The position numbers were made by a program, and so were the translations under genes. Shown one piece after another: positions 6,220 to 14,770 of a stretch of DNA of 64,000 bases. The notes beneath the pieces were generated by a model. The model ran no database searches. It was not told the DNA's origin and worked only from the letters and a program-made list of their open reading frames with translations. The DNA is from Acidobacteriota bacterium (GTDB taxonomy: Bacteria; Acidobacteriota; Thermoanaerobaculia; Multivoradales; Multivoraceae), in assembly GCA_003388555.1 (NCBI GenBank), contig QQVD01000056.1, forward strand, positions 124,001 to 188,000. Reading direction: 5' to 3'. Numbering within the stretch: the stretch's first letter is position 1; every line of letters begins with the position of its first letter.

Positions 6220-7564
6220 TCGAGTTTCTGCCCCCTCGAGTTCACCCTCTGGCCCCTCGACTTCGACCGGTTCGACGGCCGGGCCCCACAGCACCCGGCC
6301 CTCGACATCGAAGCGAGAGCCGTGGCAGGGGCAGTCCCACGTGGCGTCGTCGCGGTTGAAAGAGAGGGCGCAGCCCATGTGGCTGCAGCGGGGCTTGCCG
6401 CGCACGAGGTGTTGGACTGCGGTGGCCGCCTGCTCCGCGGCCTGGCGCACGACGCCCCCCGACCGCCAGGGCGAATAGAGCTCGGCCCAGGGGTGCTCGC
6501 GATCGGCGATCAGGTCGGGAAGGATGCAGGAGGCCACCATTGCCGACGTGATCCCCCAGCCGCCGAACCCCGTGGCGGTGAATCGGTGGCTGGATCCGGG
6601 CCGAAAGGTACCGATGAAGGGCACGCCGTCGGGGGTCACCAGGTCGTGAGCCGACCAGCGCGCGACCTCGTCGCCGAGCACGAGCCGCTCACGCGCCTGA
6701 CGCTCGAGCTTCTCGTAGGCATTGTCGGCATGGCCCATCTCCTCGCTCTCCCCGACGACCACGAGGAGGTCGCCGTGGGAGCGGAACGAGGGACCGTTCG
6801 TGCCGATGAACATGCCCTCGAACTGGCCCCGGGGACCTTGGAAGGCCATGCCGAAGTGCTGCACGGGTTTGAGGCGCAGAGAGAAGAGGGAGCGATCGAA
6901 GAGCGGGAAGAGCGTCGCGAGCACCACGTTCTCCGCGTGGAACGAGCCGAGGCTCGTCTCCACCCGGCTCCGGCCGCCGTCCTGCTCGATCTCGGTGACT
7001 CGGGCATTCTCGACCAGCAGCCCTCCTGCCTCCACGAACTTCCCGGCCAGGCCCAGCAGAAACTCGCGCGGGTGGAACTGGGCCTGGTCGCGGAACGCGA
7101 GCGCCAGGTGGGAACTCGTCGGGACCGGCTCGAGGACGGCGGGCAGCCCCAGATCGAGGGCAGCATCGAGCTCGGCCTCCAGCGATTCCGGATCGTCGTC
7201 CGTGTAGACGTAGGCGGACCGCGTCTCCAGGCGGCAACGGAGATCGAGCTCCGCGACCAGCTCGCGGTAGGCGCCCACGGCCCACTGATTCGAGTCGGCG
7301 TAGACGCGCGCCCCGTCGACGCCGAGACGCTCGATCAGCCGGCGGTAGCAGAGCCCGTGCTGGCTGGTGATCTTGCCGGTGGTGTGCCCAGAAGTGCCGG
7401 TGCCGACCCGCCGCCTCCAGCACGAGGACGCGGTGACCTTCGGCCAGTATCCGCCAGGCGGTGAGCATTCCCGTGAGACCAGCCCCGACCACCACGACGT
7501 CCGCCTCCCGGATCTCGGACGTGTAACCGGGACTGCGGGTGTCCTGCAACCAGAGCGATTCCAT
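6208..7564 (-). pseudogene. FAD-dependent oxidoreductase with C-terminal Rieske domain, frameshifted
   Basis: It starts at the ATG at 7564 behind GGAGGG with MESLWLQDTRSPGY and a dinucleotide-binding VVVVGAGLTG (about 25-34), typical of DAO-family oxidoreductases. After LVLEAA the frame is lost: the continuation (GTGTSGHTTGKITSQHG) is in another frame and runs to the stop at 6208. The total length is 3n+1, fitting loss of two bases in the GC-rich run near 7408-7415. The downstream part is intact and ends in a Rieske [2Fe-2S] site, C-S-H...C-P-C-H. Restored length would be about 452 residues. The family is usually a cytoplasmic amine/alcohol-type oxidoreductase fused to Rieske; substrate unknown. 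It is either a true pseudogene beside transposons or an assembly error. Confidence 0.75.
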
Positions 7565-7816
7565 GGCGTCGACCCTCCGATCACCTGTTCGGGGAACTGG
7601 CCTCGCCGCGATGGCACGCAGTCCCCAGCCTTTCCGGGCAGCAAGGCGTATGCCACGGGTACGACGGACCGTCGCTGCGGCCGCTCCGGAAGGGGAGCGA
7701 GTCGGCCATGCGGTGGCGATGTGGGCTCTGGCGTCAGCCGGGCTCGCACTGCCTCGTTCTCTAGGGAGAGCCCCCGCACCGCCGCGTCAACCACACCGCA
7801 CCGCCGGAGGTCCGTC

Positions 7817-8800
7817 TTGCCCCGCCTGCCCCGCTTCGTCCCCCCAGGCAAGCCCATGGTCATCACCATGCGTTGCTTCCAGTCGCGTTTCCTGCTGCGG
7901 CCGAGCGACCGCGTCAACGCCCTGATCAAGGGCGTGATCGCCAGGGCGCAGCGGCTCTACGGCATGACGATCTATGACGTCGTCGTGATGAGCAACCACG
8001 TGCACCTCTACCTCTGCCCGCGGGACCACGAACAACTCGAGGCCTTCCAGCGCTTCGTCGGCAGCAACCTCTCCAAGGAGGTCGGGGCCGAGATCTCCTG
8101 GGAGGGCGGCATCTTCCGCGGCCGCTACAGCTCCGTGCCGGTGACCGACGAGGAGAAGGCCCAGGTCGAGCGGCTCACCTACCTGCTGGCCCACGGGGTC
8201 AAAGAAGGGCTCGTGCCCCGACCGCAGGACTGGCCCGGCGTCAGCGGCGTCAAGCAGCTGATGAACGGGAACATGCGGATCCGTGGCGGCAAGTGGATCG
8301 ACCGTTCCGGGCTCTATCGAGCTCGCCGCACCTGGGAGGCCAACCAGCGGTCGAAGAGACGTCGAGTGCGCCACAAAGAGCCGCGCAAGATCGACTACAC
8401 CCACTCCCTCGACATCGTGCTCAGCCCCATCCCCTGCTGGCAGGGCTTCACCCGGGAGCAGTTCCGGAAGTCGATCGAGGCCCTCCTCGAGTCCATCCAG
8501 GAGAAGTACGCCCACCTCATCGCCCAGGTCCCCGAGGACTGGAAGAAGAGGATCCTCCGCCGCGATCCCCACCCCAGACCCGAGAAGACCAAGCGCAGCC
8601 GCCGTCCTCTCTGCCACGCAGCCAGCCGCCAAGCCAGATTCGGGTTCTGGGAGCAGTACCACGCCTGGATCAGCTCCTACATGCAAGCGTCCGAGCGCCT
8701 GCGCTCCGGCATCCGCGAAGCGATCGACGAGTTCCCCGCCGGCTGCCACCTGCCGAGGCTCAACGCCGAGGTACGCAAAGCCCTCGAGGCGCCGAGCTGA
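7817..8800 (+). CDS. REP-associated tyrosine (Y1/IS200-like) transposase, copy 1
   Basis: The product is 327 residues. The start is a TTG at 7817 preceded by GGAGG at ideal distance (CCGGAGGTCCGTC), giving LPRLPRFVPPGKP; the same start is conserved in copy 2. The HUH motif is MSNHVHLYLCP, and the likely catalytic tyrosine lies in LTYLLAHGVKEGLV, at the position of the usual Y-x3-N-P-V motif. The C-terminal half (after WIDRSGLYRARR) is Arg/Lys-rich and longer than in typical RAYTs. The enzyme would nick and rejoin single-stranded DNA, probably at the nearby palindrome. It is about 94 per cent identical to the 9296-10279 protein by counting visible differences. Confidence 0.8.
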   Translation: MPRLPRFVPPGKPMVITMRCFQSRFLLRPSDRVNALIKGVIARAQRLYGMTIYDVVVMSNHVHLYLCPRDHEQLEAFQRFVGSNLSKEVGAEISWEGGIFRGRYSSVPVTDEEKAQVERLTYLLAHGVKEGLVPRPQDWPGVSGVKQLMNGNMRIRGGKWIDRSGLYRARRTWEANQRSKRRRVRHKEPRKIDYTHSLDIVLSPIPCWQGFTREQFRKSIEALLESIQEKYAHLIAQVPEDWKKRILRRDPHPRPEKTKRSRRPLCHAASRQARFGFWEQYHAWISSYMQASERLRSGIREAIDEFPAGCHLPRLNAEVRKALEAPS

Positions 8801-8938
8801 AGCCGGCGCCGGCTCTCGAGGCCGGCCAAGGTCCGTCGTCCACCGAGCACAGAGGGCGACCAACACAGCGCACGATGCCAACCGGATCGTGTCGGCATCG
8901 CTGTATCTGGCTGTCAGAGCCGGATCAGACCGGCCGAC

Positions 8939-8952
8939 GTTTCAGCTGAAAC
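8939..8952. repeat. REP-like perfect palindrome of element copy 1
   Basis: GTTTCAGCTGAAAC is a 14-bp perfect palindrome in the 3' flank of the transposase. It is repeated exactly at 10419-10432 and partly at about 10528-10540. It could fold into a hairpin in single-stranded DNA and is a candidate recognition site for the transposase. Confidence 0.6.
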
Positions 8953-9013
8953 GCGGACTCTCCGGCCAACAGCACGAGCCACTTTCTGCCAGGTCCCTGA
9001 CCCCTTAAGTTCC

Positions 9014-9179
9014 ATCGGCTGAGGCCGAGGAGGCCCGGATCGGTGGCGCGATCTACAACGGCCTCGTGGCGTTGACCGCGAAGCACGCGGGGGCCCTACT
9101 CGTCACCGCCGACTGCCGAGCCGTGTCGGTCTACGAGCTCGTCGGCGTCGACTACCGACTGCTCGCCGACCGGCGCTAG
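9014..9179 (+). pseudogene. Truncated VapC-like PIN-domain remnant
   Basis: Between the two elements a frame without a start reads AEEARIGGAIYNGLVALTAK, then HAGALLVTADCRAVSVYELV and stops at 9179. This closely resembles the C-terminal third of VapC toxins (GGAIYDALVA...A..LVT.D.RA...YE..G), including the acidic residue of LLVTAD. The N-terminal catalytic part is gone, replaced by the end of element copy 1. It is probably a toxin gene destroyed by insertion; no antitoxin is visible. Confidence 0.6.
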
Positions 9180-9197
9180 GACGGCCACGGCGGAGAC

Positions 9198-10493
9198 GGT
9201 GTCAGCCGAGCTCGCGCGGCATCGTTCTGATGGGCAGAGAGTCCGCGCAGCACAGCCCACACATACACGCGGACCTGCACCGCCGGAGGTCCGTCTTGCC
9301 CCGCCTGCCCCGCTTCGTCCCGCCAGGAAAGCCCATGGTCATCACCATGCGCTGCTTCCAGTCGCGTTTCCTGCTGAGGCCCAGCGACCGCGTCAACGCC
9401 CTGATCAAGGGCGTCATCGCCAGGGCGCAGTTGCTCTACGGCATGACGATCCATGACGTCGTCGTGATGAGCAACCATGTGCACCTCTACCTGTGCCCGC
9501 GGGACCACGAACAACTCGAGGCCTTCCAGCGCTTCGTCGGCAGCAACCTCTCCAAAGAGATCGGGGCCGAGATCTCCTGGGAGGGCGGCATCTTCCGCGG
9601 CCGCTACAGCTCCGTGCCGGTCACCGACGAGGAGAAGGCCCAGGTCGAGCGGCTCACCTACCTGCTGGCCCACGGCGTCAAGGAAGGGCTCGTGCCCCGA
9701 CCGCAGGACTGGCCCGGCGTCAGCGGCGTCAAGGAACTGATGAAGGCGAAGATGCGGATCCGCGGCGGCAAGTGGATCGACCGTTCCGGGCTGTATCGCG
9801 CCCGCCGCGCCTGGGAGGCCAACCAACGGTCGAAGAACCGTCGAGTGCGCCACCAAGAGCCGCAAAGGATCGACTACACCCACTCCCTCGACATCGTGCT
9901 CAGCCCTATCCCCTGCTGGCAGGGCTTCACCCGCGAGCAGTTCCGGAGGTCGATCGAGGCCCTGCTCGAGTCAATCCAGGAGCAGTACGCCCACCTCATC
10001 GCCCAGGTACCCGAGGACTGGAAGAAGAGGATCCTCCGCCGGGATCCACACCCCAGACCCGAGAAGACCAAGCGCAGCCGCCGTCCTCTCTGCCACGCAG
10101 CCAGCCGCCAAGCCAGATTCGAGTGCTGGGAGCAGTACCACGCCTGGGTCAGCTCCTACATCCAGGCCTCCGAGCGCCTACGCTCCGGCGTCCGCGAAGC
10201 CCTCAAGGAGTTCCCCGCCGGCTGCCACCTGCCGAGGCTCAACGCCGAGGTCCGCAAAGCCCTCGAGGCGCCGAGCTGACACCGGCGTCGGCCTTCACAG
10301 GCCGGCCAAGGTCCGTCGTCCACCGAGCACAGAGGGCGGCCAACACAGCGCACGATGCCAACCGGATCGTGTCGGCATCGCTGTAACTGGCGGTCAGCCC
10401 CAAGCCAGCCCACCAGGCGTTTCAGCTGAAACCCGGAGCCCCCGGCCATCAGTCCGAGCCACTTTCTGCCAGGTCCCTGACCCCTTACGTTCC
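9198..10493 (+). mobile_element. RAYT-like element, copy 2
   Basis: Second copy, about 1467 bp downstream of the first and in the same orientation. The coding part and roughly 200 bp of 3' flank are highly similar to copy 1. The 5' flank has diverged more, which argues against a very recent simple duplication. It ends CTGCCAGGTCCCTGACCCC followed by TTACGTTCC. Confidence 0.65.
9296..10279 (+). CDS. REP-associated tyrosine (Y1/IS200-like) transposase, copy 2
   Basis: The product is 327 residues, the same length as copy 1, with the same TTG start (9296) and GGAGG site. The HUH motif MSNHVHLYLCP and the tyrosine segment LTYLLAHGVKEGLV are conserved. About 18 substitutions against copy 1 are scattered (for example KQLMNGN versus KELMKAK, and WISSYMQ versus WVSSYIQ). 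No frameshift is present, so both copies look maintained and may be active. Confidence 0.8.
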   Translation: MPRLPRFVPPGKPMVITMRCFQSRFLLRPSDRVNALIKGVIARAQLLYGMTIHDVVVMSNHVHLYLCPRDHEQLEAFQRFVGSNLSKEIGAEISWEGGIFRGRYSSVPVTDEEKAQVERLTYLLAHGVKEGLVPRPQDWPGVSGVKELMKAKMRIRGGKWIDRSGLYRARRAWEANQRSKNRRVRHQEPQRIDYTHSLDIVLSPIPCWQGFTREQFRRSIEALLESIQEQYAHLIAQVPEDWKKRILRRDPHPRPEKTKRSRRPLCHAASRQARFECWEQYHAWVSSYIQASERLRSGVREALKEFPAGCHLPRLNAEVRKALEAPS

Positions 10494-10604
10494 CATCTTG
10501 TGGCAGGAGGAGCTAACCGACTACCCCCCTCAGCTGAAACGCGGAGCCGCCGGTCAACGGTCCCCAAGACCTTCTCTGCCAGCTCTCTGACCCCTTAAGT
10601 TCCC
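10494..10604 (+). repeat. Third, decayed copy of the element 3' end
   Basis: Downstream of copy 2 a shorter piece repeats the CTCAGCTGAAACGCGGAGCC segment (10529-10548) and the end signature CTGCCAGCTCTCTGACCCC followed by TTAAGTTCC. There is no transposase between them. It resembles a solo end, or a non-autonomous unit mobilised in trans. Confidence 0.55.
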
Positions 10605-10631
10605 CTTGAGTTTCGAACGTGCGCTTAAGTG

Positions 10632-11498
10632 TCACCTACCGGCATCCGCAATCTGGCCGCCCCGAACCTTGACAAGAACATCTTCGACGATGGAATAGCT
10701 CCACGTAGCGATACTCAGCGGTCCATCGCATTCCATCTCAAACAGCACCTCGGTTCCCCTTCTAACCCACTTGGTCTGATGACCGGGCTCACAGTCCCGA
10801 AGACGGGAAAGCTGCCGCCTGGAGGTTCCGCTGACATCGGCCATCCAAAGATTTGGTTCGCCGGTTCGAAAACTTGAAAGGAAGGCGATCTGCCCATCAC
10901 TCGCCCGCAGCGAGACTGCCCAAGCATCAGCCAAGACCATTTTGGCGTATCTGTCACCCGGAGTCGCGGCGAGAAGCCGTCCATAGGTCGCCGTAAACAA
11001 TCTATATTCATAGAATCCAACAGGCCAATAGTTGGTCCCGAAGGACACCGAACTGCCCTCCTCAACCAACGGCCTAGCCAGGAATCCGTCCGCCCGATCC
11101 GCCAGATAGACGAGACACAGAGCAGGATCGCCCGTGGCATCGAAGCCAGTACAGCGTCGAAAACCCATGAATCGAAAGTCCTCGGACCACAGCCAATGAT
11201 CATCACGAAATGTCAACCAGTCATACTCAGCGTGCCTCGACGGAAGACCACCGGGCAGAGGCTGAACCGATACTCCGACCTCTCCGACGCCAGGCCAGCT
11301 CACGAAAGTCCGCCCCCAAGATCCCCCCACAACTTCAGAAGCTGCAAAACGGCTTCCCCATTCAGCCCTCTCGAAGATCTGAAAGAGAGAGTAGTGTCCG
11401 GTCAAGAAGGAGTAGATTCCGACGAGTGAGGCGAGAAATCCGACAGCACCGACAAACATCGGCACTCTCCGAGTTAACCGCGCAGGCCGCTCACCCAT
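10632..11498 (-). CDS. Membrane-anchored protein with C-terminal WD40-like (PD40/TolB-type) repeat
   Basis: The product is 288 residues from the ATG at 11498 (a TTG eight codons upstream is also possible). One transmembrane helix lies near the N-terminus (PMFVGAVGFLASLVGIYSF), followed by an exported or soluble domain. A clear PD40-type blade is IAFLSSFRTGEPNLWMADVS followed by GTSRRQLS. The rest is unrecognised. The start codon overlaps the stop of the small upstream gene (ATGGGTGA), implying translational coupling. Base composition is noticeably more AT-rich than the surroundings, so the gene was probably acquired together with the next two upstream genes. Function unknown. Confidence 0.65.
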   Translation of the reverse strand: MGERPARLTRRVPMFVGAVGFLASLVGIYSFLTGHYSLFQIFERAEWGSRFAASEVVGGSWGRTFVSWPGVGEVGVSVQPLPGGLPSRHAEYDWLTFRDDHWLWSEDFRFMGFRRCTGFDATGDPALCLVYLADRADGFLARPLVEEGSSVSFGTNYWPVGFYEYRLFTATYGRLLAATPGDRYAKMVLADAWAVSLRASDGQIAFLSSFRTGEPNLWMADVSGTSRRQLSRLRDCEPGHQTKWVRRGTEVLFEMECDGPLSIATWSYSIVEDVLVKVRGGQIADAGR

Positions 11499-11667
11499 TG
11501 ATCGCCGGTTGACTTGCCGCAACGTCTTCTCGATCCCTCGGAACCGCAGGACCGCCGGACCAGTGTGCGAATCCTGAGCTCGTGGCCATGTGCCGCCGCT
11601 CCTGAATCTCTAGTCCATTCTCGAAGTCCGGCTTGGGGAGAGCTCTCGTAGTATTGGCACGAGCCAT
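11491..11667 (-). CDS. Small hypothetical protein (58 residues)
   Basis: The ATG at 11667 follows an excellent ribosome site (GGAGGAGGAAGCGTCC), and the stop overlaps the start of the 10632-11498 gene. The protein is hydrophilic with no recognisable domain. The strong ribosome site and the coupling overlap are the reasons for calling it; there is no homology support. Confidence 0.4.
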   Translation of the reverse strand: MARANTTRALPKPDFENGLEIQERRHMATSSGFAHWSGGPAVPRDREDVAASQPAING

Positions 11668-11748
11668 GGACGCTTCCTCCTCCACCGAGGGCAGGCGCTT
11701 CTTGGGCAGCAACTCCGAAGTCTCGCGGGAAGAACTACCAGGGTATGG

Positions 11749-12852
11749 TCAGCTCAAGGCTCGATCAAGCCGGCGCCTCCACTCAATTATCACCTCACTG
11801 ACCTCGAGAAAACGCTGCAGGTGTCCGCCAAGCCTAGAGTTGACTCGCCTCAGGCCCCGTGAGGCTGATCCGATCTCGTTCAGCGTTGCAATGAACGTTG
11901 CGATCCTCTCGTTACTCTTTTCTACAGTCTGCCCTAGGGTCCGAAGACCACCTACGAAGACCCCTGGAACCTTCTCCCCGCCAAACCCCTCCCCAATCTG
12001 ATCAAGGATAAAATCCAGCCCAGGCGCGACGCTATGGATCGTGGAAGAGAAGTCCTCTACGCCGTCTCGCAGCGCAGGCTCAATTCTCTCAAGGCGTCGA
12101 GCGGCCCGCTCTGCAGCCGCAAGGCGGCCACCCGCCCCGCCACCAGTCGCGTCCGACCTTCGAATTTCCTCAGTGGCCGTCTCCCACACTTGGTTTATTT
12201 CCTCAACGGCCCTGGTCATCGGTTCGACTTTTGAAGCCAATGATTCCAAACCTTGCTGTGAGCTGACCATTTTCTCAAGGTATCCGGGTTCATCGAGATC
12301 TACGAGCCCTTCGGCCTCTTCGAGCGGCAAGGAAGTCGCTTGCTTTTGCCTAGGCTCGCTGTCATCGGCGAAAGACAACCATACACGCGTCGCGGTAACC
12401 GGCAGACCTCTGCCTGCCAGAGCTGACTTGAGGGTCGAGACTAGTTCCTTTCTTGCAGCGATGTAGCCGTACTCTGTACGAATGAACATATTCGTGCGAA
12501 TTGCACTGACATCGAACGGCAGCCGCCCTCGTTCCCCGATCTGAACGGTCGGCAAACCGGTCGTATGGCGGAGTCCTAGTTCGTACATGACGTTCGCATT
12601 CCCGCTCGTCAGATCCGCGATCACCAGTTCCGCCGTTCGAAGAAGACGACACACTTGCTCCGGAATCTCTCCCGTCTCGTCGATGTGGTCAGCGCGCAAA
12701 GCCTCGATCCCCGCTTCCTGACAAGCTGGCTCTATGAGCCTTTCCCAGGTCTCTATGCTCCGCTCCCAGACCTCTCGTTCCGGCGTTCCAAGCTGGGCGT
12801 TCTTGTCACCGATTGGACAGATGACCAGGCACTCGCTCTTCTTTTTGGTCAT
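11749..12852 (-). CDS. Nucleoside 2-deoxyribosyltransferase/TIR-like protein with helical C-terminal half
   Basis: The product is 367 residues from the ATG at 12852. The N-terminal about 150 residues are a Rossmann-like fold with CLVICPIGDK, GTPEREVWERS and the diagnostic ADLTSGNANVMYELGLRH, seen in nucleoside deoxyribosyltransferase-like and TIR-related NAD/nucleotide-processing domains. The glutamate of YELG is the likely catalytic residue by analogy. The C-terminal half (about 190-367) is Glu/Arg/Leu-rich and probably coiled coil, perhaps for oligomerisation or sensing. Codon use and GC are lower than in the flanking chromosome, and two small genes follow on the same strand. A role in phage defence or stress NAD depletion is an inference; a plain nucleotide-salvage enzyme is less likely given the long helical tail. 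Confidence 0.7.
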   Translation of the reverse strand: MTKKKSECLVICPIGDKNAQLGTPEREVWERSIETWERLIEPACQEAGIEALRADHIDETGEIPEQVCRLLRTAELVIADLTSGNANVMYELGLRHTTGLPTVQIGERGRLPFDVSAIRTNMFIRTEYGYIAARKELVSTLKSALAGRGLPVTATRVWLSFADDSEPRQKQATSLPLEEAEGLVDLDEPGYLEKMVSSQQGLESLASKVEPMTRAVEEINQVWETATEEIRRSDATGGGAGGRLAAAERAARRLERIEPALRDGVEDFSSTIHSVAPGLDFILDQIGEGFGGEKVPGVFVGGLRTLGQTVEKSNERIATFIATLNEIGSASRGLRRVNSRLGGHLQRFLEVSEVIIEWRRRLDRALS

Positions 12853-12928
12853 AATAATTCTTCACTCGCCAGCGCCGCCGTTAGGCGCGCACCAAGTTGT
12901 CTTCCTTGGGGCCACCGCCCCTCCCCCC

Positions 12929-13627
12929 ATGCACACCACCTACATCCACCCCCAAATCCGCTCCTCCCAACTTCTCTTCTCCGCCCTCCTCGCCACCCGC
13001 CTCGCGACCACCCTCCTCGAGCACCTCACCGCCTTCGCCGACCGCCTGCACTCCGCCCACCAGGCCGGGAACGACGCCGTGGTGGCGCACCTCTCCTCCT
13101 GGTGCCCCGAGCGCATCTCCCTCTCTGCCTCCGACCAACTCGCTCTTCCCCTCTCCGTCTCCGAAGCCCGAGCCTCCACTGCGCGGGAGCACGGCTACCG
13201 CGACTGGATGGAGGTGGGTAACGAATCGGCCGGCAAACGTTTCGACCCTCTTTTCGAGAAGGCAGTCGACTGCGTGGTGACCGGGGAGGCGGACATGCTG
13301 CGAGCGCTGCTGACGCAGCGGCCGGAGCTGGCGACGGAGCACTCACCGTTCGGCCACGGCGCGACCCTGCTGCACTACGTGGGCGCCAACGGGGTGGAGA
13401 CTTGGCGGCAGACGGCGCCGAGCAACGGAGCCGAGATCGCTTCGATCCTGCTCGAGCGCGGCGCCGACCCTGCGGCCAGCGCCGGCATGTACGGCGGTTC
13501 GACGGCGCTCGAGCTGGTGGAGACGAGCGCGCACCCCGCCGCCGCTGGCACCACCGAGGCGATCGCGGCGGTGCTCCGCGAGGCGCTCGAAGGAGCCGCC
13601 GACGCTCCGGGCTCAGACGCTCCCTGA
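12929..13627 (+). CDS. Ankyrin-repeat protein
   Basis: The product is 232 residues. I start at the ATG at 12929 (MHTTYIHPQIRSSQLLFSAL) because upstream codons overlap the divergent gene's leader. The C-terminal half shows ankyrin-type helices: AVDCVVTGEADMLRALLTQR, then GHGATLLHYVGANGVE, then EIASILLERGADPAA. There is no signal peptide, so it is probably cytoplasmic. Ankyrin proteins mediate protein contacts; the partner is unknown. Composition returns to the high-GC norm here. Confidence 0.75.
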   Translation: MHTTYIHPQIRSSQLLFSALLATRLATTLLEHLTAFADRLHSAHQAGNDAVVAHLSSWCPERISLSASDQLALPLSVSEARASTAREHGYRDWMEVGNESAGKRFDPLFEKAVDCVVTGEADMLRALLTQRPELATEHSPFGHGATLLHYVGANGVETWRQTAPSNGAEIASILLERGADPAASAGMYGGSTALELVETSAHPAAAGTTEAIAAVLREALEGAADAPGSDAP

Positions 13628-13750
13628 CCTCTCGACTCTCTCGCTCGGTTTCGTTCGCTTCGCAGCCTCCCGTCGGCTCTCCAGGAGGTCCACTGGAACT
13701 CCTCTGGACATCCGGCGCGGCCTCGCACTACCCCAAACGACGCTTCCGCT

Positions 13751-14233
13751 TCACTCCTCCGGCATCCACTCCGGATTCCACACCACCTCCCAGAGATGCC
13801 CATCTGGATCCTGGAAGTAGCCCGAATAGCCACCCCAGAACGCGTCGTGCGCTGGCTTGACGATGCGGGCTCCGGCGCGGGCGGCGCGGTCCATCGCTGC
13901 GTCGACCTCCTCGCGGGAGCGCACGTTGTGGCCCAGGGTGAGCTCCAGCGCGCCGGCAGCACGACCCGCTCCTCCTCTGTCGCCTCTGTCGGCTCTGTCA
14001 CCTGCGTCGCCGCGCGGGTCAACACCGCCGAGCCCGGTGTCGTGCGCGATGCTGGTGCGCGGCCACAGGGCGAGGCGCAGGCCGGGCTGCAGATCGAAGA
14101 CGACGACGGCGCCGTACTCGAAGTTCTCGCCGAGGATGCCGTCGGTGGCGAAGCCGAGGCCGTCGCGGTAGAAGCGCAGTGAGGCTTCGAGGTCGTCGAC
14201 GCCGAGGGTGATAACGGAGAGTCGGGGTTTCAT
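13751..14233 (-). CDS. VOC (glyoxalase/bleomycin-resistance-type) family protein
   Basis: The product is 160 residues from the ATG at 14233 (MKPRLSVITLGVDDLEASL). Paired beta-alpha-beta-beta-beta modules show LRFYRDGLGFATDG, an internal Asp/Arg/Gly-rich insert (about 72-92), and GYSGYFQDPDGHLWEVVWNP, the usual metal-site glutamate region. The family covers metal-dependent lyases, dioxygenases and resistance proteins; the substrate cannot be read from sequence. The frame continues upstream without a stop to an ATG at 14584, adding a hydrophilic stretch (SEEERARLLRAIAEIR); I regard this as a separate or fused upstream ORF. Confidence 0.8.
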   Translation of the reverse strand: MKPRLSVITLGVDDLEASLRFYRDGLGFATDGILGENFEYGAVVVFDLQPGLRLALWPRTSIAHDTGLGGVDPRGDAGDRADRGDRGGAGRAAGALELTLGHNVRSREEVDAAMDRAARAGARIVKPAHDAFWGGYSGYFQDPDGHLWEVVWNPEWMPEE

Positions 14234-14770
14234 GGTCTCTTGATTCGTGCTTCCGGGAAGCCGCGGCCGTCGAGGGTGTTTGCTGCGAGGGTGTTTGCTG
14301 CTCCTGCGTTCCCTGGCTACGAAGTTCGCGTCTTCGCGCCGAACAGCCCGAATCTCCTCGATCTCCGCCATCCCGTCGCCATCGCTGGTCACGGGCGTAC
14401 GGCGGATCTCGGCGATCGCCCTGAGCAACCGGGCACGTTCCTCCTCGCTCAGGCGATCGCTGGGCCCCTGCCTCGGTCGGTCGTTCCTCGGCTCGACCTT
14501 CTTCAGCTCTTCCTCCTGCCCGGCTTCCTCCTGCCTGGCGTTCTGCTGGTCGCGCGTGTTCTCGTTGGCGGCGGACTCCTTCATCGAGTCATGGGTTGGG
14601 ATGATCTCGAGATCTTAGGCTCACTTCCGAAACCGTGGACCCGCCCAGCGTCTGCACCCACGAAACGACGCGAACGCCCCCGAATCCACCGACCCCACGA
14701 CATCCGTAAGGGTTTCGGCGGCCGACCGTCTGCTTGTCCGGCTGACGAACCCTCCGCTAAGGTGCTCACG
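14234..14770. other. Spacer with a possible minus-strand ORF in frame with the VOC gene
   Basis: Minus-strand codons from 14584 down to 14234 encode a Glu/Arg-rich sequence (DRLSEEERARLLRAIAEIRR) that looks protein-like. They run without a stop into the VOC gene and include a tandem SKHPR-SKHPR duplication. Either the VOC protein has a 117-residue extension, or a small gene has lost its stop. The remainder is the leader of the copper-island gene. Confidence 0.3.

What the first reader, a model, noticed from the sequence alone, without database searches (positions are those of the whole stretch)
10632..12852. AT-rich three-gene block with NDT/TIR-like protein: candidate defence cassette
An ADLTSGNANVMYELGLRH-type nucleotide-processing domain joined to a coiled-coil half, a tiny coupled ORF and a membrane PD40 protein form one operon of foreign composition beside transposons. 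This combination is not one I can name.
Basis: inference. Interest (0 to 1): 0.55.

Follow-up and report, generated by a model that had tools for sequence, protein, structure and literature searches.

The report
TIR-like enzyme with shared helical tail
A probably horizontally acquired bacterial gene encodes a likely NAD- or nucleotide-cutting immune enzyme, and its helical tail is shared by relatives that carry different immune-type heads, which hints at a swappable anti-phage trigger module.

Summary
A block of 57% GC (64-kb mean 70%) at about 10,606-12,868 carries, on the minus strand, a 367-aa protein, a doubtful 58-73 aa ORF and a 288-296 aa protein with one hydrophobic segment, beside two similar Y1/RAYT-like transposase genes. 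The 367-aa protein is the real finding. Its first ~150 residues model as the TIR/NDT Rossmann fold (best matches DNPH1, MilB, TIR-STING, SARM1), keep the YELG glutamate (E91), and their family profile finds Rcl/DNPH1 by sequence. Its last ~180 residues model as a four-helix bundle that reaches no Pfam cut-off. In relatives the bundle carries other heads: canonical TIR (strong evidence), DUF4062, the Swarozyc NADase domain (moderate), and Schlafen AlbA_2 (one case). The likeliest reading is a one-protein, abortive-infection-type effector: helical sensor/oligomeriser plus NAD(P)+- or nucleotide-cleaving head. Activity, trigger and defence are untested. No conserved link to the membrane protein or small ORF was found, so the "three-gene cassette" is unproven. 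In actinobacteria a branch sits in a fixed cassette, and one clade there lost the glutamate, so not all family members are enzymes. Verdict: new variant of a known kind.

The parts
11749..12852 (-). 367-aa protein: NDT/TIR-superfamily head (about residues 3-150, probable catalytic Glu91 in YELG) + linker (about 155-190, low confidence) + four-helix bundle (about 191-366)
   Evidence: ORF; AlphaFold model, pLDDT 73.9, pTM 0.46; VIA Z 12.5 DNPH1, 12.4 MilB, 12.2 TIR-STING, 11.8 SARM1, ties; bundle alone pLDDT 86.5, pTM 0.79; seven near full-length relatives at 31-36% identity
12394..12852 (-). head domain; G15, R53, G61, D80, N85, N87, Y90, E91, R95 and F113 invariant in the 18 rows of A8 (rows chosen by me; the glutamate-lacking clade L043-L055 is not among them)
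   Evidence: alignment A8; profile finds Rcl/DNPH1 at 3.1e-6 with YELG on YELG; PADLOC TIR effector PDLC00733 at 4.3e-6
11749..12303 (-). helical tail module (residues 184-367), shared with TIR-, DUF4062- and SLFN_AlbA_2-headed proteins elsewhere
   Evidence: profile-profile 99.6% / 8.3e-24 with TIR-headed tails and 96.5% / 7.4e-10 with DUF4062-headed tails, with shuffles and coiled-coil controls
Reality doubtful
   Evidence: no convincing match in the loci searched
10632..11498 (-). 288-aa protein (296 aa from TTG 11522), one N-terminal hydrophobic segment, perhaps a TolB/PD40-like C-terminal half; ATG 11498 overlaps the small ORF's stop by 8 bases
   Evidence: hydropathy peak 2.02; marginal TolB-type matches only; no Pfam match at E<=1
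10606..12868 (.). low-GC block (0.572) that holds the three ORFs; best two-boundary fit within 9,000-14,500 is 10,460-12,870
9230..10279 (+). Y1/RAYT-like transposase gene (93% identical twin ending at about 8800), with repeats to 10,603; neighbour, not part of the effector

Best explanation
The 367-aa protein is a horizontally acquired immune effector that works as a single polypeptide. The head is an NDT/DNPH1-branch member of the TIR-DrHyd superfamily, and its Glu91 would attack the N-glycosidic bond of NAD(P)+ or another nucleotide. The tail is a four-helix bundle that keeps the head off, then clusters or re-aligns it when a phage-derived cue binds, so that NAD+ loss stops infected cells. 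Shown here: the fold of both halves by model, conservation of the glutamate in the closest relatives, the tail shared with other immune-type heads, and unusual composition. Inferred: enzymatic activity, substrate, trigger, horizontal transfer, and that the outcome is anti-phage defence. The adjoining membrane protein may be cargo of the same transfer rather than a partner.
For: Fold: DNPH1, NDT and TIR chains are among the top rows. Family profile to Rcl/DNPH1 3.1e-6 with YELG aligned. The glutamate is kept in 17 of 30 distinct NDT-headed sequences including the window and in the 18 chosen rows of A8. Tail swap: five TIR-headed relatives (L057-L059, L103, L113; Pfam TIR_2 above the curated cut-off in 4 of 5, L103 27.6 against 28), one of them (L113) in the window's own phylum. 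NDT-headed and TIR-headed tails agree at 99.6% / 8e-24, score 147, against a shuffle maximum of 20.5. The reverse search with TIR-headed tails in 245 genomes at 1e-8 returned 11 places: 2 TIR-headed, 9 at known NDT-headed genes. DUF4062-headed tails: 96.5%, 7e-10; L086 is found by the NDT-headed tail profile at 1.1e-11. In the tail tree an NDT-headed protein (L004) groups with three TIR-headed rows at 96/91, and the window joins them at 83/79. A TIR_2 gene lies beside the DUF4062-tail gene in 3 of 4 loci inspected. GC3 of seven TIR- or DUF4062-headed genes is 0.53-0.63. Literature: DUF4062 proteins are NADases, one of them shown to be triggered by a phage portal and to need its auxiliary domain (PMC13174449, Results part 1 read); SpbK is a portal-triggered TIR NADase (PMC12847820, abstract read); DrHyd domains are named as NADase effectors (PMC9503650, passages read).
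Against: No activity or phage data. The window head reaches no Pfam cut-off (Nuc_deoxyrib_tr 12.1 bits against 28.8). Pfam names no defence gene among the seven neighbouring ORFs scanned. In 13 of 30 distinct NDT-headed sequences the glutamate is gone, so a non-enzymatic role exists in this family. Helical profiles attract unrelated coiled coils: A3 finds designed coiled coils at 6e-9 in the PDB, close to or better than its matches to L063 (1.1e-7) and L064 (8e-7). So the DUF4062 link is only moderate; alone, L063 is borderline (36.4 against a control maximum of 35.6), L087 fails (28.9), and TIR-headed against DUF4062-headed tails gives only 79.5%. Not every relative is compositionally odd: the TIR-headed gene in L115 has GC3 0.73 among neighbours of about 0.70-0.85.
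Confidence: 0.5

Rival explanations
1. Regulatory or signalling protein, not defence: the head binds or cuts a nucleotide to control gene expression, as the actinobacterial branch suggests, where the gene sits behind a conserved ~250-aa gene and an HTH_17 gene.
For: 27 of 29 distinct NDT-headed loci outside the window carry both upstream genes; GC3 of five of these genes is 0.75-0.945; a clade of 13 lost the glutamate, 100/99 support.
Against: The window, L003 and L004 lack the cassette and the window gene is AT-rich for its host; the window protein keeps the ten residues invariant in A8; its tail groups with TIR-headed tails, not with the cassette branch, at moderate support (83/79).
Confidence: 0.22
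2. Two-part system: the head makes a nucleotide signal (such as a cyclic ADP-ribose) and the co-transcribed membrane protein is the effector that disrupts the envelope.
For: Same strand, close spacing and the same low GC; one likely transmembrane segment; ATG 11498 overlaps the small ORF's stop by 8 bases (read); the DUF4062-tail locus L081 also has an unnamed downstream gene with a hydrophobic stretch (read by eye).
Against: The membrane protein was not found beside head or tail relatives in L001-L029 nor in plasmids; its positively charged N-terminus suggests that the PD40-like part lies outside the cytosol, away from a cytosolic signal (inference).
Confidence: 0.15
3. Ordinary nucleotide-pool enzyme (DNPH1- or NDT-like hygiene or salvage) that happens to have a coiled-coil tail.
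For: Closest solved relatives by sequence are Rcl/DNPH1 nucleotide N-hydrolases.
Against: Unusual GC; no other genome of the 196 relatives searched has a match covering both halves; the tail is shared with TIR, DUF4062 and SLFN heads, which a salvage enzyme does not explain (inference).
Confidence: 0.08

Closest known systems
Swarozyc (DUF4062 TIR-like NADase; PMC13174449)
   Same: TIR-like head with a catalytic Glu plus a C-terminal auxiliary part; DUF4062 heads occur on the same helical tail in relatives (L062, L064, L086 above the Pfam cut-off, L063 below it)
   Different: The window head is not DUF4062 by Pfam; the KpSwz auxiliary domain is described as HTH/winged, whereas this tail models as four long helices
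SpbK and other single-gene TIR NADases (PMC12847820, abstract)
   Same: Modular protein with an NAD-cutting head that answers a phage protein; clustering of the heads switches SpbK on
   Different: The head here is NDT-branch, no trigger is known, and the tail was not compared with SpbK
Retron-Eco1 NDT-like effector (title on NAD+-hydrolysing filaments seen only in the reference list of PMC12548924; that its effector is NDT-like is recalled)
   Same: NDT-like domain used as an NAD+-hydrolysing effector
   Different: No reverse transcriptase among the seven neighbouring ORFs scanned and no Rfam match at 7000-14000; a helical tail instead
DNPH1/Rcl, MilB and NDT enzymes
   Same: Head fold and, for Rcl/DNPH1, the YELG glutamate in the sequence alignment
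   Different: These are stand-alone nucleotide enzymes without the helical tail (recalled; chain lengths of about 125-165)
PADLOC PDLC00733 'TIR' effector
   Same: Match to residues 40-136 (4.3e-6); 7.7e-10 for the Kitasatospora relative
   Different: The match covers only positions 267-365 of that 388-position profile; the tail is not covered

Membership tests
NDT / DNPH1 (Nuc_deoxyrib_tr, PF05014) | Sequence match above the Pfam cut-off | tested here: not met
   12.1 bits against 28.8 for the window head; 7 of 18 rows of A8 match at E<=0.5, best 3e-4
NDT / DNPH1 (Nuc_deoxyrib_tr, PF05014) | NDT/DNPH1 fold with the YELG-type glutamate | tested here: met
   Z 12.5, rmsd 2.6, 122 residues to 8rpt; Rcl 3.1e-6 with Glu aligned; E91 present
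TIR domain (PF01582/PF13676) | Sequence match to a TIR profile | tested here: not met
   No TIR family at E<=1 in Pfam; the PADLOC TIR effector match is weak, 4.3e-6
TIR domain (PF01582/PF13676) | TIR-like fold | tested here: met
   TIR-STING Z 12.2, SARM1 Z 11.8, tied within 1 with DNPH1, so TIR and NDT cannot be told apart by fold
Swarozyc / DUF4062 | DUF4062 head | tested here: not met
   No PF13271 match for the window protein at E<=1; present on the same tail in relatives
Swarozyc / DUF4062 | HTH/winged auxiliary domain that binds the phage portal | tested here: inconclusive
   The tail models as four long helices; it was not aligned with KpSwz and portal binding was not tested
Thoeris / CBASS TIR systems | ThsA, CD-NTase, SAVED or STING partner next door | tested here: not met
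   None among the seven neighbouring ORFs scanned with Pfam between 6,208 and 18,687; PADLOC was run only on the three ORFs of the block; the remainder of the window was not scanned
Retron with NDT effector | Reverse transcriptase and msr-msd RNA adjacent | tested here: not met
   No RT among the seven ORFs scanned, no Rfam match at 7000-14000; uncatalogued retron RNAs are not excluded
Any NADase defence effector | NAD+ hydrolysis and phage protection | not testable with these tools
   needs bench work

The most novel reading that the evidence does not exclude
The four-helix tail is a new general-purpose immune trigger module: one sensor/oligomeriser on which bacteria have exchanged NDT-like, TIR, DUF4062 and Schlafen-type heads, giving an undescribed family of single-gene abortive-infection effectors; in actinobacteria one branch was domesticated and in part turned into a pseudo-enzyme.
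Probability: 0.35. Interest if true: 0.7.

Novelty: new variant of a known kind. Interest (0 to 1): 0.5.

Why it matters
If the tail is a shared trigger, it gives a handle on a general question: what do TIR-like NADases sense? One tail with several heads makes that testable, because heads can be exchanged while the trigger is held constant. It also links NDT-branch heads to TIR and, less firmly, DUF4062 heads by domain exchange rather than by fold alone.

Tried and rejected
The window head as canonical TIR or DUF4062 by sequence: no Pfam match. Conserved operon: the membrane protein found only two marginal TolB-like matches besides itself in 196 genomes and nothing in plasmids; the small ORF found nothing convincing in the loci then held, L001-L029. 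Relatives in viral contigs: the single-protein scan found none; the profile scan found one (L060), whose profile match runs to position 219, that is the head and little more. The tail against known folds: best VIA Z 11.8 (STAT coiled coil), MukF 11.7; for helical bundles Z under about 13 may be only a common arrangement, so no relative is claimed; BFVD gave nothing at E<=0.001. Deeper modelling with A2 was not sent, because it holds loci from a source that the predictor does not list. Weak tail matches L065, L066 and L071-L078 (kinase, PhoU-like, chemoreceptor-type and other frames, judged by eye) were treated as coiled-coil background. L070 (a fragment, 1.3e-8) was not followed. L057 as a TIR-headed case is incomplete: its frame lacks the start of the TIR domain (Pfam match from profile position 37). 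Promoter/terminator scan of 10,280-13,000: no promoter-like site; 2 terminator-like sites against 2.0 expected.

Literature: 9 paper searches. No title or abstract start in their listings describes this tail or a head exchange on it; that covers only the open-licence library held and the rows shown.
Full report
What is there. On the minus strand lie a 367-aa ORF (12852-11749), a 73-aa ORF (11712-11491) and a 296-aa ORF (11522-10632). The block is AT-rich for its setting: GC 0.572, against a mean of 0.700 (sd 0.018) and a minimum of 0.656 over 57,024 other overlapping windows of equal length in the 64 kb; the best-fitting boundaries are 10,460 and 12,870. GC3 is 0.61, 0.65 and 0.58 in the three ORFs against 0.87 and 0.90 in the genes on either side. 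To the left stand two Y1/RAYT-like transposase ORFs (matches below the curated cut-offs), 93% identical by protein, with 29-base repeats reaching 10,603. The own genome has 11 places that match this transposase.

How sound each ORF is. In 2,000 simulated sequences of the same composition, 6 had a stop-free run of 367 codons or more and 36 one of 296 or more, both strands counted; relatives make the 367-aa ORF certain. The 73-aa ORF is of chance length (3.6 expected on that strand, 500 simulations). An inner ATG at 11667 has a GGAGGAGG upstream; 27 of 991 ATGs in the window have a GGAGG there. The membrane protein starts at TTG 11522 or ATG 11498, the latter overlapping the small ORF's stop by 8 bases (read); it has one hydrophobic segment (mean 2.02 over 19 residues). 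Its only matches at E<=0.001 in 196 genomes, besides itself, are two PD40/TolB-type proteins at 5.6e-4 and 9.5e-4 (type judged from the sequences).

The head. AlphaFold with eight sequences gives a Rossmann-type domain at residues 3-147 (mean pLDDT 73.9, pTM 0.46, so the domain arrangement is not to be trusted, and residues 86-88 and 90-96, around the glutamate, have pLDDT under 50). Foldseek lists NDT, RPP1 and SARM1 TIR and DNPH1 chains among its top rows, mixed with some helical bundles and with no E-value under 0.001. VIA-align gives Z 12.5 to DNPH1, 12.4 to MilB, 12.2 to TIR-STING and 11.8 to SARM1, which are ties. A family profile (A8, 18 chosen rows) finds Rcl/DNPH1 at 3.1e-6 by sequence with YELG on YELG, and CAP12 only at 0.69. 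Ten residues including E91 are invariant in those 18 rows. That this glutamate is the nucleophile in DNPH1, NDT and TIR enzymes is recalled knowledge, in line with the E88 and E103 mutants in the titles. Pfam does not name the window head.

The tail. Modelled alone, residues 179-367 form four long helices with pLDDT 86.5 and pTM 0.79. No specific relative is claimed: the best Z of 11.8 lies below the level that helical bundles reach by common arrangement.

The tail carries other heads. In 391 genomes of the order of the Kitasatospora relative, 27 held a match at 1e-25 or better; three of these (L057-L059) match only in the tail and one (L056) only in the head. L057-L059 carry Pfam TIR_2 above the cut-off, though the L057 frame lacks the start of the domain. 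A fourth (L103; TIR_2 27.6 bits against a cut-off of 28) and a fifth (L113; TIR_2 53.6 bits), the latter in the window's own phylum, followed. In 72 genomes of the window's order the tail profile matched 6 at 1e-3: the window, three proteins with DUF4062-type heads (L062, L064 above the Pfam cut-off; L063 17.3 against 24.7) and two frames judged to be coiled-coil background. Searching 247 genomes of the phylum with those three as a full-length profile matched 10 genomes at 1e-10; of the 12 places, L086 and L087 also carry the tail by the DUF4062-headed tail profile, and L086 also by the NDT-headed one (1.1e-11). In 346 genomes of the phylum of L005's genome, 12 matched the tail at 1e-3: two known NDT-headed, L069, which carries SLFN_AlbA_2, and nine weaker ones not accepted. 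In 287 genomes of the window's phylum, 3 matched at 1e-6: the window, L113 and the L086 gene.

Is the shared tail real or just coiled-coil bias? NDT-headed tails against TIR-headed tails: probability 99.6%, score 147. Against DUF4062-headed tails: 96.5%, score 65.6. 240 column and heptad-preserving shuffles never passed 20.5, reversed alignments gave 14.6 and 24.6, and seven unrelated coiled-coil frames gave at most 35.6. Single sequences: L069 60.4, L086 51.2, L064 45.9 and L062 44.5 stand above the controls; L063 (36.4) is borderline and L087 (28.9) fails. TIR-headed against DUF4062-headed tails directly gives only 79.5%. The tail profile also finds designed coiled coils at 6e-9 in the PDB. 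I therefore call the TIR link strong, the DUF4062 link moderate and the SLFN link a single case. The reverse search (TIR-headed tails in 245 genomes, E<=1e-8) gave 11 places, two TIR-headed and nine at NDT-headed genes already found.

Two ways of life. Among 29 distinct NDT-headed loci with the tail outside the window, 27 carry an HTH_17-type gene and a conserved ~250-aa gene upstream (L033 duplicates L007 and is not counted); GC3 of five of these genes is 0.75-0.945. Thirteen of 30 distinct NDT-headed sequences, window included, have lost the glutamate, and the thirteen form one clade at 100/99. The window, L003 and L004 lack the cassette; GC3 of L003 is 0.65 and of L004 0.73. Seven TIR- and DUF4062-headed genes measured have GC3 0.53-0.63, most of them clearly below their neighbours; but L086 lies in a region of GC 0.54 where this says little, and the TIR-headed gene of L115 (0.73) is not low. 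In the tail tree L004 joins the TIR-headed rows at 96/91 and the window joins them at 83/79; the window's end branch is long (1.6), so that place is unsure.

Neighbours. They differ from locus to locus. One pattern stands out: of four DUF4062-tail loci inspected (of five), three have a TIR_2 gene directly next door (L080, L081, L116); the fourth (L079) has none recognisable by eye in its list. In L080 the set sits between prohead protease and major capsid genes (Pfam). The head domain was matched in 40 phage records and 68 plasmid records, none covering 80% of the query. In the three phage records inspected of the 40, the gene is transcribed against most of the genes around it, in one of them on the strand of the annotated integrase and repressor, a usual place for genes that a prophage expresses for its host's protection (inference). 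The window itself has no TIR gene among the seven neighbouring ORFs scanned, between 6,208 and 18,687.

How it most likely works. A NAD(P)+- or nucleotide-cleaving head is held off by the helical bundle; a phage-derived cue clusters or re-aligns the bundle and the head depletes its substrate, stopping the infected cell. This copies the logic shown for Swarozyc, where a phage portal triggers a TIR-like NADase through its auxiliary domain (PMC13174449, Results part 1 and passages read), and for SpbK, whose TIR heads cluster on a phage portal (PMC12847820, abstract). DrHyd-type domains are listed among NADase effectors in PMC9503650 (passages). Shown: folds by model, glutamate conservation in the near relatives, tail sharing, composition. 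Not shown: activity, substrate, trigger, protection.

Verdict. The finding is a new variant of a known kind, lifted by the head exchange on one tail.

Noticed in passing
L080:5373-8854, L081:2877-4464, L116:6189-9579: In three of four inspected loci the DUF4062-tail gene has a TIR_2 gene directly beside it (once a pentapeptide-TIR_2 protein, with a weakly DUF5677-like gene on the other side), which suggests a TIR plus TIR-like pair.
   Followed up: partly
L080:4379-10673: A low-GC3 set of a weakly 8xMP-like gene, a TIR_2 gene and a DUF4062-tail gene sits between a prohead protease and a major capsid gene.
   Followed up: partly
L043-L055: A clade of 13 NDT-headed proteins has replaced the YELG glutamate with Gly or Ala but keeps the HTH_17 cassette: probable pseudo-enzymes.
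   Followed up: yes
L001:26-1551, L005:3314-7872: Upstream of some actinobacterial genes are a ~250-aa protein with a GDG motif that looks like a class III cyclase by eye (no Pfam match) and a Crp-like cNMP-binding regulator (Pfam for L005): a possible cyclic-nucleotide link.
   Followed up: partly
window 7798-10603: Tandem pair of RAYT-like transposase genes (300-nt core 96% identical) with 195-nt and 29-nt repeats; the genome has 11 places matching this protein.
   Followed up: partly
L098, L100, L101: The NDT-like head occurs as a short gene in temperate Streptococcus and Staphylococcus phages, transcribed against most of its neighbours; annotated only as hypothetical protein or gp11.
   Followed up: partly
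L069:958-2088: The same helical tail joined to a Schlafen AlbA_2 domain, in a low-GC contig.
   Followed up: partly
window 12932-13627: The divergent neighbour looks like an ankyrin-repeat protein by eye, but Pfam gave no match at E<=1 for the longer ORF 12734-13627.
   Followed up: no
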